Part shown: in pieces, positions 4,662-23,872 of the stretch | Layout: every line of letters starts with the position of its first letter | How positions within the stretch are numbered: position 1 is the stretch's first letter | Assembly: GCA_009726125.1 (NCBI GenBank) | Contig: WLIT01000001.1 | Location: forward strand, 124,001-188,000 | Direction of reading: 5' to 3' | From: Actinomycetota bacterium | Lineage (GTDB): Bacteria; Actinomycetota; Actinomycetes; Nanopelagicales; Nanopelagicaceae | Length of the DNA: 64,000 bases | Notes under the pieces: generated by a model | Seen by the model: only the letters and a program-made list of their open reading frames with translations | Database searches by the model: none | What the model was told of the DNA's origin: nothing | Translations under genes and position numbers: made by a program

Positions 4662-5429
4662 ATGGTAAACCTAACAAACGGTCAATGGAGCACGTTGTAT
4701 AACATGTTCTCATTTGGCTTGATTTCGATGCTTGCATGCACCGTTTATACATTGGTGTCACAAGCTCGTGTACTACCTAAATACCGTAATGCACTTGTTC
4801 TATCTTCAATGGTTACATTCATTGCTGCGTACCACTACTTCCGCATTTTCAACTCATTTGATGAGTCATCAGGTGATGGTGGAGTAACAGTTGGAACAGC
4901 AAAGGGTGCCTTCAATGAGGCATATCGTTATGTTGACTGGATCCTGACCGTACCTCTTCTACTTGTAGAAGTTATTGCAGTACTTGCGCTCGCTAAGGCC
5001 GCTGCAAGTTCACTAATCGGTCGCCTAGTCCCAGCCTCAGCAGCGATGATTGCTCTTGGTTACCCAGGTGAAATCTCAGCTGTTACAAGCACAAAGGTTA
5101 TGTTCGGCGTACTATCCACAATCCCATTCCTTTACATCCTTTACGTTCTATTCGTAGAACTTGGAAAGTCATTAGAACGTCAACCAGAAGGTGTAGCAGC
5201 AACAGTTGGTCGCCTACGTCTTCTCTTGATCGCAACATGGGGCGTTTACCCAATTTCATACCTACTACCAATCCTTAGCGATACATCTGCAACTGATCCA
5301 AGTGCATTTGTTAATCGCCAAATTGGTTACACAGTCGCAGACGTACTTGCTAAGTGCGTATTCGGATTAACAATCTACAAGATTGCTCGTCTGAAGTCTG
5401 CAGCAGAAGGCATGAAGGAAGATCACTAA
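4662..5429 (+). CDS. actR: Actinorhodopsin, light-driven proton pump
   Basis: Seven-helix retinal protein that exports protons on illumination. Key residues are readable: H58 (partner of the acceptor), D92 proton acceptor, T96, E103 proton donor (a DTE motif in RYVDWILTVPLLLVEV), L100 at the spectral-tuning site, predicting green absorption, and K231 as the retinal Schiff-base lysine in helix G. By hand alignment, G149 takes the place of proteorhodopsin F152, the small residue that opens a side window for a carotenoid antenna in xanthorhodopsin-like pumps. GGAGG at 4650-4654 supports the ATG. The 206-base upstream region contains no convincing -35/-10 pair that I can defend. A strong terminator follows, and lycopene cyclase and blh lie next door. 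Confidence 0.96.
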   Translation: MVNLTNGQWSTLYNMFSFGLISMLACTVYTLVSQARVLPKYRNALVLSSMVTFIAAYHYFRIFNSFDESSGDGGVTVGTAKGAFNEAYRYVDWILTVPLLLVEVIAVLALAKAAASSLIGRLVPASAAMIALGYPGEISAVTSTKVMFGVLSTIPFLYILYVLFVELGKSLERQPEGVAATVGRLRLLLIATWGVYPISYLLPILSDTSATDPSAFVNRQIGYTVADVLAKCVFGLTIYKIARLKSAAEGMKEDH

Positions 5430-5450
5430 TCTGATCTAGTTTTAAAATAG

Positions 5451-5490
5451 ATTTGGGGGCACCTACCAAGGTGTCCCCAAATTTTTTTCT
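5451..5490 (+). terminator. Rho-independent terminator after actinorhodopsin
   Basis: Arms 5451-5463 and 5470-5482 form a 13-bp stem with one G-U pair and loop TACCAA; the right arm runs into a seven-T tract (5482-5488). It starts 21 bases after the rhodopsin stop codon and is the only textbook intrinsic terminator I found in the window. Confidence 0.93.
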
Positions 5491-5522: not shown

Positions 5523-5759
5523 ATGACAAATTATCGCTGGGGTGGCTATTTATTAGTCGCAATGGGGCTTTTAAATTTGCGCTACCAAACCGGACAACCA
5601 GGTGTATTTACTCATAGTTTAATTATTCTCTTACCTGGAGCCTTAATTTTAATTATGAGCTTTATTTCTTCAACAGCAAAAATATTGAATACTAAAGGCG
5701 CCAAGATCGTTTCAATTGTAGTTGGAGTAGCAACAATTCTTTATGCCGCAATTAATTAA
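5523..5759 (+). CDS. Small membrane protein of unknown function
   Basis: A 78-residue protein with two or three hydrophobic segments (about 7-17, 32-48 and 59-76) and a basic stretch between the last two. I do not recognise a family. It sits between the actinorhodopsin terminator and the lycopene cyclase genes and overlaps convergent crtYd by 4 bases. TATCCT ends 5 bases before the ATG, and AAAGGGG lies further upstream, so it may be leaderless or weakly led. Its place in the phototrophy module suggests, but does not show, a link to rhodopsin or carotenoids. Confidence 0.7.
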   Translation: MTNYRWGGYLLVAMGLLNLRYQTGQPGVFTHSLIILLPGALILIMSFISSTAKILNTKGAKIVSIVVGVATILYAAIN

Positions 5760-6064
5760 TCTTTAGGCTGAAATCCTTTACGTCCCCAATAAACCCATAA
5801 GCTCATTACCGCTAATACAAGAGCGAAACCAAAGAGCAAATCTTCGACGGGTGCGCTACAAACTCTTCGTCCAATAATGGCATCAGGGCTGTACATAACT
5901 ATATTTCTAGAAGTTAGCCACCAATTCGTAATAAGTTGAAAAGGCAAAATAATTGCGTAAGAGGTCCAGAAAACGGATTTAGATAGCAACATAGTTTTAG
6001 CGCCATACATATCAAATAGAACTGCTGCGATAACACCACCCAGTGCAATATCTGTATAAATCAT
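5756..6064 (-). CDS. crtYd: Lycopene beta-cyclase subunit, second half (CrtYd type)
   Basis: One half of the heterodimeric actinobacterial lycopene cyclase, which closes the beta rings of carotenoids in the membrane. The 102-residue protein has three hydrophobic helices and the cyclase-domain signature APVEDLLFGFAL, equivalent to the PxE(E/D)xxF motif of the family. It is translated from an ATG overlapping the crtYc stop (ATGA, 6061-6064), so the two subunits should be made in equal amounts. The 3' end overlaps the small membrane protein gene by 4 bases. Product beta-carotene is the substrate of the neighbouring Blh. Confidence 0.9.
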   Translation of the reverse strand: MIYTDIALGGVIAAVLFDMYGAKTMLLSKSVFWTSYAIILPFQLITNWWLTSRNIVMYSPDAIIGRRVCSAPVEDLLFGFALVLAVMSLWVYWGRKGFQPKD

Positions 6065-6441: not shown

Positions 6442-7395
6442 GTGAATGGCGCCAAAACAGTATTTAACTCAGTTCGAAAATTCTCCACCCTTGCGGTTCT
6501 ATTCGCGATTCTTATCTCTGGGGTCTTGTCTTTAACATCTGCAGGTGAAAGCCTTGGCTGGCAGGTTGGCTTTGCGCTACTTGCACTGACACTCGGAATC
6601 CCACATGGTGCTATCGATCATTTAGTTGCCCTTCCAGCAACAACTAAACCGAAATGGTTTCTATTGATATTTATTTACATTGCAGTTTCCATAATTGCCG
6701 TTCTGGCTATTTTGCACTGGAATAAATTGGGATTTCAACTGGTTTTAGTAATGAGTGCTCTGCATTTCGGTTTTGGTGATGCTGCTTTTATAGCGGAGAA
6801 AGATCGACTCAATCTGAAAAGCAGAATGACCTTCAAGACGCAAACCATGTTTGCTATTTCATCTGGGACAATTCCGGTATTTATACCGTTGCTAAAAGGT
6901 TCAACGGCTAGTGCGCTCCGCGAAATTAACCCGTTATTGATTAGTTGGGCTGCTGATGTCTCGTCACAAATTAGGTTTTTAGTTGGTTTTTTCTTTATAG
7001 CAACGCTAATTCTTCTGTTAAAAGAGAAACGTACTCGGGAGGTTATGGATTTGGTGCTCTTGGCTGGACTCGCAATTATTGCGCCACCGCTAGTTGCATT
7101 CGCTGTTTACTTCGGGTTCTGGCATGCAATGCGCCACACTTCAAGGCTGACTTTAATTCTGCCAAAGGCAATTAAAGAAGCTGAGCGCAACAATCCTAAA
7201 GCTTCCTTCATTGCGGTTGTAATTCCAGGGCTACCGGCGCTCTTGGGAACAGTTCTTGTTGCTCTAGCAATTGCGCTTATTGACGGTAAGAATATTGATG
7301 TTAGCTACTTATGGTACTTATTAGTATTGGTCTGGGCCTTAACGGTGCCACACATGATTGTCACTTCAAAAATCGATCAAAAAGCGCTAGCTTAA
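6442..7395 (+). CDS. blh: Blh, beta-carotene 15,15'-dioxygenase (Brp/Blh family)
   Basis: Membrane iron oxygenase that cleaves beta-carotene into two retinals, supplying the actinorhodopsin chromophore. The 317 residues form many hydrophobic helices carrying the family histidines: H55 and H60 in GIPHGAIDH, H108 in SALHFGFGD, H228 and H232 in FWHAMRH, and H304 in VPHM. The start is a GTG placed exactly 6 bases after TATACT, with no Shine-Dalgarno. It diverges from the lycopene cyclase genes that make its substrate and stops 1 base before a convergent unknown gene. Confidence 0.94.
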   Translation: MNGAKTVFNSVRKFSTLAVLFAILISGVLSLTSAGESLGWQVGFALLALTLGIPHGAIDHLVALPATTKPKWFLLIFIYIAVSIIAVLAILHWNKLGFQLVLVMSALHFGFGDAAFIAEKDRLNLKSRMTFKTQTMFAISSGTIPVFIPLLKGSTASALREINPLLISWAADVSSQIRFLVGFFFIATLILLLKEKRTREVMDLVLLAGLAIIAPPLVAFAVYFGFWHAMRHTSRLTLILPKAIKEAERNNPKASFIAVVIPGLPALLGTVLVALAIALIDGKNIDVSYLWYLLVLVWALTVPHMIVTSKIDQKALA

Positions 7396-7396
7396 A

Positions 7397-8215
7397 TTAT
7401 TTACCTGCTGCAACTGTTGCGGGGTGAATAATAAAGAGCGGTAATTCACGCTTCTTCTGCTCTTTACGCGTTGTAGCTATTGCTTCAATTCGATTATCAC
7501 AATGCTCTTTGAGGACGTCGTAAGCTGGCTGTCCCATAAGTGCAACCAGTTCAACCTTATTTGAAATATAAACAGGTTCACGGCCTACATGTGCTTCAGT
7601 ATTGCTTGTGCAATACCAATCAAAATCTTCTCCACCATCTCCCCAAGCTAAGCGTTCATATTCACCAATTACATTTACCGTGATTTGTTTATCACCAAAT
7701 TCTCGCTCTTCAAAACTTCTGCGAATAGGAAGCTGCCAACAAACATCTGGCTTTGTTTCTACAAAATGCACGCCTTCTTTTTCAGCTAAGTGGTGAAGTG
7801 CGCAACCGAAGCTTCCGGTAAAGCCAGGAGCGCTGTAACCCTTGCGGTTCAAGAAAATACATGAATCTTCTATTTTTCTGGTTTTACGATCTTTATCTAA
7901 GCCAATTTCAGAAATTTGCATCTTGCCCTTAGATTTCTTTGGTTGGGCTTCATCAAAATACTGCCACATATCGGGTGTTAATCGCTTTGCAACTTCTAGT
8001 GTGCGTTTCTCATCTGCATCATCGGAGTAATAAGCACCGTCGGAACAACAACCAGCATCTGGTTTGTCAGCGTCAACGCCACAGCAACCATTTCCGTAGA
8101 TGCATGTCCAATAAGAAGTGAGCCAAGTCAGGTCGCATTTATAAAGCTCTTCTGGCTTTGCGGGATCAATAAACTCGACCCAGTCGCGAGCGAAATTTGG
8201 ATTTACCTCTGGCAT
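7397..8215 (-). CDS. Conserved cysteine-rich protein of unknown function
   Basis: A 272-residue soluble protein without signal peptide or membrane segment. It has 11 cysteines: C27, C38, a pair C44-C45, a pair C56-C57, then C119, C138, C159, C202 and C239. The spacing of the N-terminal six suggests a zinc or iron-sulfur site, loosely like YkgJ/DUF3109-type proteins, but I cannot name the family. It diverges from proC; a TAGGCT hexamer 8 bases before the ATG and an 8-bp inverted repeat at 8232-8250 form its control region. The 3' end is 1 base from convergent blh. Confidence 0.8.
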   Translation of the reverse strand: MPEVNPNFARDWVEFIDPAKPEELYKCDLTWLTSYWTCIYGNGCCGVDADKPDAGCCSDGAYYSDDADEKRTLEVAKRLTPDMWQYFDEAQPKKSKGKMQISEIGLDKDRKTRKIEDSCIFLNRKGYSAPGFTGSFGCALHHLAEKEGVHFVETKPDVCWQLPIRRSFEEREFGDKQITVNVIGEYERLAWGDGGEDFDWYCTSNTEAHVGREPVYISNKVELVALMGQPAYDVLKEHCDNRIEAIATTRKEQKKRELPLFIIHPATVAAGK

Positions 8216-23008: not shown

Positions 23009-23872
23009 CTATGTTAAAGATAGTGCGAGCGTTATCAACAGTGATGTTAGTAATTGAAGCTCACCGGTTTTACTTAGGAGAGGGATAAGCGCCGGACCTG
23101 ATGCCCCACCATTGATTCCTTTAAGCAATTTGAATTGAAGTGGGAGCGTGGCCAAAACAAGTAGCGCCCATGGCGTAATGGCCGCGGCTGCAAGAGAGCA
23201 TAGAAGTGAGAGTAAAAGCAGGGCGATTATTAACTTCCGGGCCATAGCATCGCCAAGTCTTACGGCGAGTGTTCGCTTGCCTACTAGTTCATCTTCTGGT
23301 CGATCTCGCAGATTATTTAAACCAAGAATCGTGCAGGAGAGCGCGCCCATTGGAATAGAAAGTAAGAGTGATTGCCAAGTAATTCGCTCTGATTGCGCAA
23401 AATATGAGCCCATGGTCGCAACTAAACCGAAGAAGATAAATACTGAAACTTCACCGAAGCCACCATATCCATAAGGGTTCTTGCCACCGGTATATTTCCA
23501 AGCCGCAATAATGGCAATCGCACCAACAATAATTAGTAGTGGTGAAGTTCGAAGTGAAAGAAGAAGGCCGGCTATTGCAGCAAAGAGGTAAGTCAAAATT
23601 GCGGCTCGTTTGACTTGGAATGGCGCTTTCAATCCGCTGGCAACAAGGCGAATTGGACCAACTCGAACTTCATCTGTTCCACGAATTCCATCGGAATAAT
23701 CATTTGAATAATTGACTGCAATTTGTAATAACAAGCCAACAGTCAATGCCAACAGAGCATTTACCCAATTGATTTCTTGGCCATCAATATTTATGAGCGC
23801 TGTGCCAATTAGTACTGGGGCAATAGCCGCAGCTAGTGTGCGCGGACGAGCACCCGCAATCCAAATATTCAT
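23009..23872 (-). CDS. menA: MenA, 1,4-dihydroxy-2-naphthoate polyprenyltransferase
   Basis: Membrane prenyltransferase that joins the isoprenoid tail to the menaquinone head group. The 287 residues have about eight helices and the UbiA-family aspartate motif in NYSNDYSDGIRGTDE, with a second in NNLRDRPEDELVGK. It follows menE by 4 bases in the same minus-strand operon. The tail would come from the polyprenyl diphosphate synthase encoded at 46010, after the nuo genes. Confidence 0.96.
   Translation of the reverse strand: MNIWIAGARPRTLAAAIAPVLIGTALINIDGQEINWVNALLALTVGLLLQIAVNYSNDYSDGIRGTDEVRVGPIRLVASGLKAPFQVKRAAILTYLFAAIAGLLLSLRTSPLLIIVGAIAIIAAWKYTGGKNPYGYGGFGEVSVFIFFGLVATMGSYFAQSERITWQSLLLSIPMGALSCTILGLNNLRDRPEDELVGKRTLAVRLGDAMARKLIIALLLLSLLCSLAAAAITPWALLVLATLPLQFKLLKGINGGASGPALIPLLSKTGELQLLTSLLITLALSLT

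What the first reader, a model, noticed from the sequence alone, without database searches (positions are those of the whole stretch)
4662..5429. Actinorhodopsin keeps the antenna-window glycine
Hand alignment of helix E with green proteorhodopsin puts G149 opposite F152. In xanthorhodopsin a glycine at this place opens a side window for a carotenoid antenna. With DTE (D92, T96, E103), L100 (green type) and K231 intact, the pump may use a carotenoid antenna as well as retinal, and the neighbouring genes make cyclic carotenoids. No hydroxylase/ketolase (crtZ/crtW) lies in this window, so the antenna pigment is unknown.
Basis: partly seen in the sequence, partly recalled or inferred. Interest (0 to 1): 0.6.

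Follow-up and report, generated by a model that had tools for sequence, protein, structure and literature searches.

The report
Light-pump keeps a carotenoid antenna window
A freshwater actinobacterium's light-driven proton pump has the small opening that lets related pumps add an orange antenna pigment; the opening was already known in this pump family, but nearly all its relatives keep it, and the one exception found sits in a genome whose orange-pigment genes have decayed.

Summary
Window 4662-5429 (+) encodes a 255-aa actinorhodopsin. G149 aligns without gaps with the antenna glycine of xanthorhodopsin (G156), Gloeobacter rhodopsin (G178) and Kin4B8 (G153), and opposite GPR F152 when anchored from the helix-E end. 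DTE, L100 and K231 are as stated. The antenna idea for actinorhodopsins is already published: ActR-13023 has the equivalent Gly145 and binds its native carotenoid (PMC8113403).

Three results go beyond the finding. (1) 176 of 177 distinct Nanopelagicales opsins keep G149. (2) The only closed window (G149F plus T153M; MAG ZLKRG08) lies in a genome where no Blh, CrtYc/Yd or CrtA was found, crtB, crtI, the glycosyltransferase and crtA are missing from the crt site, and crtD is degenerate: one derived event in a draft genome. (3) The window's genome has no CrtZ-, CrtW/CrtR-, P450- or CrtO-type enzyme, but a second crt cluster (CrtE-B-I, CrtD-, CruG-, CruF-, CrtA-like) predicts a deoxymyxol-type glycoside, i.e. 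salinixanthin without the 4-keto group.

Antenna function in vivo is inferred, not shown. Lutein/zeaxanthin is not supported: the ring-A pocket (Y-L-I-L) resembles Gloeobacter rhodopsin (Y-L-M-L), not Kin4B8 (Y-A-S-Y).

The parts
4662..5429 (+). Actinorhodopsin (ActR), 255 aa, seven-helix light-driven H+ pump of the xanthorhodopsin/actinorhodopsin group
   Evidence: PF01036, 7e-39; model; top folds psXR, GR, RlActR, XR, Kin4B8
4935..4970 (+). D92 / T96 / L100 / E103: DTE motif plus green-type tuning leucine
   Evidence: invariant in 177 distinct relatives
5106..5108 (+). G149 codon (GGC): antenna-window glycine = XR G156, GR G178, Kin4B8 G153, GPR F152
5118..5120 (+). T153 codon: second window residue = GR T182, Kin4B8 T157
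   Evidence: roles of these residues in PMC9151804 and PMC13093654
5127..5129 (+). F156 codon = GR F185 (carotenoid locked motif)
5259..5276 (+). Helix-F ring-A residues Y200, L201, I204, L205 (Kin4B8 204/205/208/209 = Y A S Y; GR = Y L M L; XR = Y M M A)
5352..5354 (+). K231, retinal Schiff-base lysine
5449..5484 (+). Terminator-like 16-pair stem followed by a T run just after ActR (suggests a single-gene transcript)
   Evidence: consensus match only
5756..6064 (-). CrtYd-like lycopene cyclase subunit
   Evidence: PF18916, TIGR03462
6061..6396 (-). CrtYc-like lycopene cyclase subunit, overlaps crtYd by 4 bases
6442..7395 (+). Blh, beta-carotene 15,15'-dioxygenase (retinal synthesis)
   Evidence: PF15461; TIGR03753 above cut-off

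Best explanation
The gene encodes an outward light-driven H+ pump with an open carotenoid window between helices E and F beside the retinal ring. Blh makes its retinal from beta-carotene. The window is kept because the cell fills it with its own pigment, most likely the beta-ring end of a monocyclic deoxymyxol-type glycoside made by CrtE-B-I, CrtYcYd, CruF-, CrtD- and CrtA-like enzymes and a CruG-like transferase. Blue-green light absorbed by the carotenoid then passes to retinal. Shown here: the residues, their conservation, the gene set, and the co-decay in one lineage. Inferred: binding, energy transfer and the pigment's structure.
For: Glycine aligned with three rhodopsins known to bind carotenoids. 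G149 and T153 are kept in 176 of 177 distinct relatives and Y200 in all 177. The one exception (L097, genome G226) has G149F (TTC for GGC) and T153M, two of its four changes at 100 otherwise invariant positions; both sites matter for carotenoid binding in GR (G178W abolishes it; the T179G/T182G double mutant impairs it). In G226 a whole-genome search found ActR and a diverged CruF but no Blh, CrtYc, CrtYd or CrtA; the syntenic crt site lacks crtB, crtI, GT2 and crtA, and its CrtD-like ORF has lost the FAD motif. Closure is derived: L097 groups at 100/90 with glycine-bearing opsins of genomes that have CruF, CrtA and lycopene cyclase. Pigment genes; CrtY+CruF+CrtD+CrtA-OH make deoxymyxol in E. 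coli (PMC11855829); a keto-free salinixanthin exists in Rhodothermus (PMC5822342). ActR-13023 binds its native carotenoid and the initial pumping rate rises (PMC8113403).
Against: The binders described in the papers read carry a 4-keto or hydroxylated ring; beta-carotene does not bind Kin4B8, and reducing salinixanthin's keto group abolishes binding to XR. No enzyme that would modify the ring was found here. The CruF/CrtD/CruG/CrtA assignments score below NCBIfam equivalog cut-offs. CruF is also universal in relatives without ActR, so the pigment has another role too. The exception is a single MAG at about 6x coverage with unreported completeness; CrtB and CrtI were sought only in 571 kb of about 1.4 Mb plus the syntenic site.
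Confidence: 0.6

Rival explanations
1. The glycine is kept for fold or photocycle reasons or by descent; no carotenoid is bound in this organism.
For: No ring-modifying enzyme found; beta-carotene does not bind Kin4B8; canthaxanthin does not bind ActR-13023.
Against: Glycine is not structurally required: GR G178W is more stable and pumps better, and GPR and BPR carry F or W there. The only natural closure coincides with carotenoid-gene decay.
Confidence: 0.22
2. The native carotenoid binds but mainly shields or stabilises the pump, with little energy transfer.
For: In GR, G178W mimics benefits of carotenoid binding; salinixanthin binds Kin4B8 without transfer; in ActR-13023 only the initial rate rose.
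Against: Efficient transfer is known for XR and Kin4B8; not tested for this protein.
Confidence: 0.12
3. The window is filled by an exogenous xanthophyll such as algal lutein or zeaxanthin.
For: No CrtZ/CrtR/P450 found; Kin4B8 binds lutein and zeaxanthin.
Against: Ring-A pocket lacks the polar S/Y of Kin4B8. The closed-window lineage lost its own carotenoid genes, which would not matter if pigment were imported.
Confidence: 0.06

Closest known systems
ActR-13023 (Candidatus Aquiluna IMCC13023), PMC8113403
   Same: Actinorhodopsin with the XR-type glycine (Gly145), DTE motif and own retinal synthesis genes; binds its native carotenoid
   Different: Different lineage (Luna-1); pigment unidentified; its carotenoid gene set not compared here
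Xanthorhodopsin of Salinibacter ruber (3ddl)
   Same: Window glycine and tyrosine; its monocyclic glycosylated antenna resembles the one predicted here
   Different: 46% identity in the fold match; its antenna has a 4-keto ring, for which no enzyme was found here
Gloeobacter rhodopsin (6nwd)
   Same: Same window and near-identical helix-F ring-A residues (Y L M L against Y L I L)
   Different: Binds 4-ketocarotenoids; has T179 where ActR has V150
Kin4B8 (7ytb, 8i2z)
   Same: Window G, T, Y
   Different: Polar S208/Y209 at ring A, suited to 3-hydroxy xanthophylls; ActR has I204/L205
RlActR (9hfk), Rhodoluna lacicola
   Same: Best sequence match in PDB (E 4e-82), glycine kept
   Different: Phe in place of window Tyr200; no antenna experiment found in PMC11790970

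Membership tests
Actinorhodopsin | Best PDB match to a known actinorhodopsin, DTE motif, Schiff-base lysine | tested here: met
Actinorhodopsin | Cys/Thr at helix A and Cys at helix G | tested here: met
   C26 and C232; feature as given in PMC8113403
Actinorhodopsin | Outward light-driven H+ pumping | not testable with these tools
   Inferred from the motif and from pumping shown for ActR-13023
Antenna-binding (fenestrated) rhodopsin | Glycine in place of bulky residue at XR 156 | tested here: met
Antenna-binding (fenestrated) rhodopsin | Tyr at XR 207 / Kin4B8 204 | tested here: met
   Y200
Antenna-binding (fenestrated) rhodopsin | GR carotenoid locked motif G-T-T-F (178/179/182/185) | tested here: inconclusive
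   G149, T153, F156 kept; GR T179 is V150 here
Antenna-binding (fenestrated) rhodopsin | Bound carotenoid with energy transfer to retinal | not testable with these tools
   needs reconstitution
Kin4B8-type (3-hydroxy xanthophyll) binder | Polar residues at 208/209 near the ring hydroxyl | tested here: not met
   I204, L205
4-keto antenna system (XR/GR type) | Own 4-ketolase (CrtW or CrtO) | tested here: not met
   No PF00487; own amine-oxidase-family proteins are CrtI-like, CrtD-like or other, none near the CrtO cut-off
Deoxymyxol/salinixanthin-type monocyclic carotenoid pathway | Lycopene cyclase + CruF + CrtD + CrtA-OH (+ glycosyltransferase) | tested here: met
   Homologues of each present; several below equivalog cut-offs, product not tested

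The most novel reading that the evidence does not exclude
Nanopelagicales actinorhodopsins use an antenna whose ring is plain (neither 4-keto nor 3-hydroxy), a deoxymyxol-type glycoside received by a hydrophobic GR-like window, and the window closes (Gly to Phe, Thr to Met) when a lineage loses its carotenoid genes and must import retinal. This would break the rule that the bound ring needs a keto or hydroxyl group, and gives a natural test of antenna use.
Probability: 0.4. Interest if true: 0.68.

Novelty: new member of a known kind. Interest (0 to 1): 0.48.

Why it matters
[quoted passage not shown] Whether their pump harvests blue-green light with a carotenoid bears on their energy budget. 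The finding now comes with a named pigment candidate, a pocket prediction, and a natural closed-window homologue that can serve as an experimental control.

Tried and rejected
Ring hydroxylation or ketolation by known enzymes: PF00487, PF04116 and P450 absent in the own genome (the first two also absent in the 24 genus-mates searched); CrtO ruled out among the amine-oxidase hits. C50 carotenoids by CrtEb: the three UbiA-family genes are one not typed further, MenA (window 23009-23872), and a weak unassigned prenyltransferase; not supported but not excluded. CruF as a marker of antenna use: rejected, since it is in 108/108 near-complete genomes with or without ActR. CrtA presence: absent in 6 of 21 ActR-less against 1 of 87 ActR-bearing near-complete genomes (Fisher 2e-4), but all six belong to one genus, so this may be one or a few events. 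Exact mass: the ActR-13023 pigment (m/z 591.4946) is 77 mDa from sodium-deoxymyxol (591.4173), so no match is claimed; its 472/501 nm bands would also fit lycopene (own knowledge). Dwulit-Smith 2018 and Tzlil 2025 were not held, so earlier statements on acI antennas could not be read; PMC12805836 cites the former for an actinorhodopsin carotenoid.

Full report
What is there. Window 4662-5429 (+) is an intact 255-aa actinorhodopsin gene, the only ActR match in its genome (1.31 Mb, 94.8% complete). The family includes genomes titled Candidatus Nanopelagicus and Planktophila. Downstream lie a strong terminator-like hairpin (5449-5484), a two-subunit lycopene cyclase on the other strand, and blh. 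Of 61 relatives' loci with at least 2.5 kb downstream, 21 carry all three neighbour genes.

The window residue. G149 is aligned glycine-to-glycine and without gaps in helix E with xanthorhodopsin, Gloeobacter rhodopsin, psXR, Kin4B8 and RlActR. PMC12308411 takes the glycine (XR G156, Kin4B8 G153) and the tyrosine (XR Y207, Kin4B8 Y204) as marks of a carotenoid site; here they are G149 and Y200. Alignment with GPR is unstable because the DE loop differs by two residues, but anchored at YxxYxL it gives F152. An AlphaFold model (pLDDT 79) places G149 in helix 5 (142-171) and its best fold matches are psXR, GR, RlActR, XR and Kin4B8; no coordinates were available, so window geometry was not measured.

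Which pigment would fit. The ring-A residues of helix F are Y200, L201, I204, L205: nearly GR's (Y L M L) and unlike Kin4B8's polar S208/Y209. Among 177 relatives position 204 is always I, M, L or V. This argues against the lutein/zeaxanthin analogy.

What the cell can make. Own genome: no FA_desaturase (CrtW/CrtR) or FA_hydroxylase (CrtZ) domain, likewise none in the 24 genus-mates searched, and no P450. A second crt region on contig C32 (locus L133) holds CrtB, CrtI, CrtE, then a CrtD-like desaturase, a CruG-like GT2, a CruF-like hydratase and a CrtA-like oxygenase. In Nonlabens, CrtY+CruF+CrtD+CrtA-OH yield deoxymyxol in E. coli and CrtZ is needed to reach myxol (PMC11855829). Rhodothermus makes salinixanthin-like acyl glycosides both with and without the 4-keto group (PMC5822342). 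The expected pigment is therefore a salinixanthin-like glycoside with a plain beta ring. This is inference from homology: the CrtD, CruF, CruG and CrtA models score below their equivalog cut-offs.

Family survey. In 201 genomes of the order, ActR is in 87 of 108 near-complete ones, CruF in 108, lycopene cyclase in 105, CrtA in 101. Of 177 distinct ActR sequences collected, 176 have G149.

The exception. L097 (VEQG01000005.1, MAG ZLKRG08, genome G226) has F149 (TTC) and M153. It departs from the other 176 at only four of 100 invariant positions (R36H, G149F, T153M, G194A), though that is more than any other sequence in the set. Two of the four fall in the window; picking at least two of four window sites by chance has p about 0.007, a post hoc figure. 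Its pump motif is intact. A whole-genome search of G226 finds ActR and a diverged CruF but no Blh, CrtYc, CrtYd or CrtA; the same search found the cyclase at 53-64% identity in four other genomes that carry it. At the syntenic crt site crtE remains, the CrtD-like ORF is 362 aa without GxGxxG and scores 38 bits against 290, and crtB, crtI, GT2 and crtA are missing. The tree nests L097 among glycine-bearing opsins (100/90) beside three genomes that keep CruF, CrtA and cyclase. So closure and decay are both derived in one lineage. GR G178W shows that closing the window blocks carotenoid but gives a stable, better pump (PMC9151804), which makes the change understandable once the pigment is gone.

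What is and is not new. Glycine, docking model and carotenoid binding for an actinorhodopsin were published in 2021 (PMC8113403), and PMC12805836 refers to an actinorhodopsin carotenoid in acI. I found no held paper giving the ring-enzyme-free deoxymyxol prediction, the pocket comparison or the ZLKRG08 co-decay, but two key papers were not readable, so novelty of these points is tentative.

Limits. One exception is one event in a draft MAG. Binding, energy transfer and the pigment were not tested. A plain-ring antenna would go against the present rule that the bound ring carries a keto or hydroxyl group, which is the main reason for caution.

Noticed in passing
L281:7268-10123 (genome G226, ZLKRG08): Decayed crt site: crtE kept, CrtD-like ORF without FAD motif, CruF-like protein at 42% identity still open. 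What a retained, diverged CruF does without carotenoid synthesis is unexplained.
   Followed up: partly
genus g3 genomes G007, G044, G068, G080, G113, G123: ActR-less genomes that also lack the CrtA-like gene; three of them (G044, G113, G123) lack lycopene cyclase too, so would make only acyclic carotenoids.
   Followed up: partly
order Nanopelagicales, e.g. G018, G041, G121: Several genomes carry two lycopene cyclase pairs (four PF18916 hits), one near ActR or on another contig and one near the CruF cluster, suggesting separate cyclases for retinal and for the complex carotenoid; the window's genome has only the ActR-linked pair.
   Followed up: no
window 7397-8215 (-): 272-aa cysteine-rich protein next to blh with no Pfam match.
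   Followed up: no
L134:2687-3853 (-): 388-aa FAD amine-oxidase-family protein of unknown role in the same genome, next to a large multi-pass membrane transporter-like protein.
   Followed up: no
Genome contigs records L038, L041, L089: MAGs titled 'Bifidobacterium breve' whose opsins are 76-93% identical to this one; the titles look like mislabelled freshwater Nanopelagicales.
   Followed up: no
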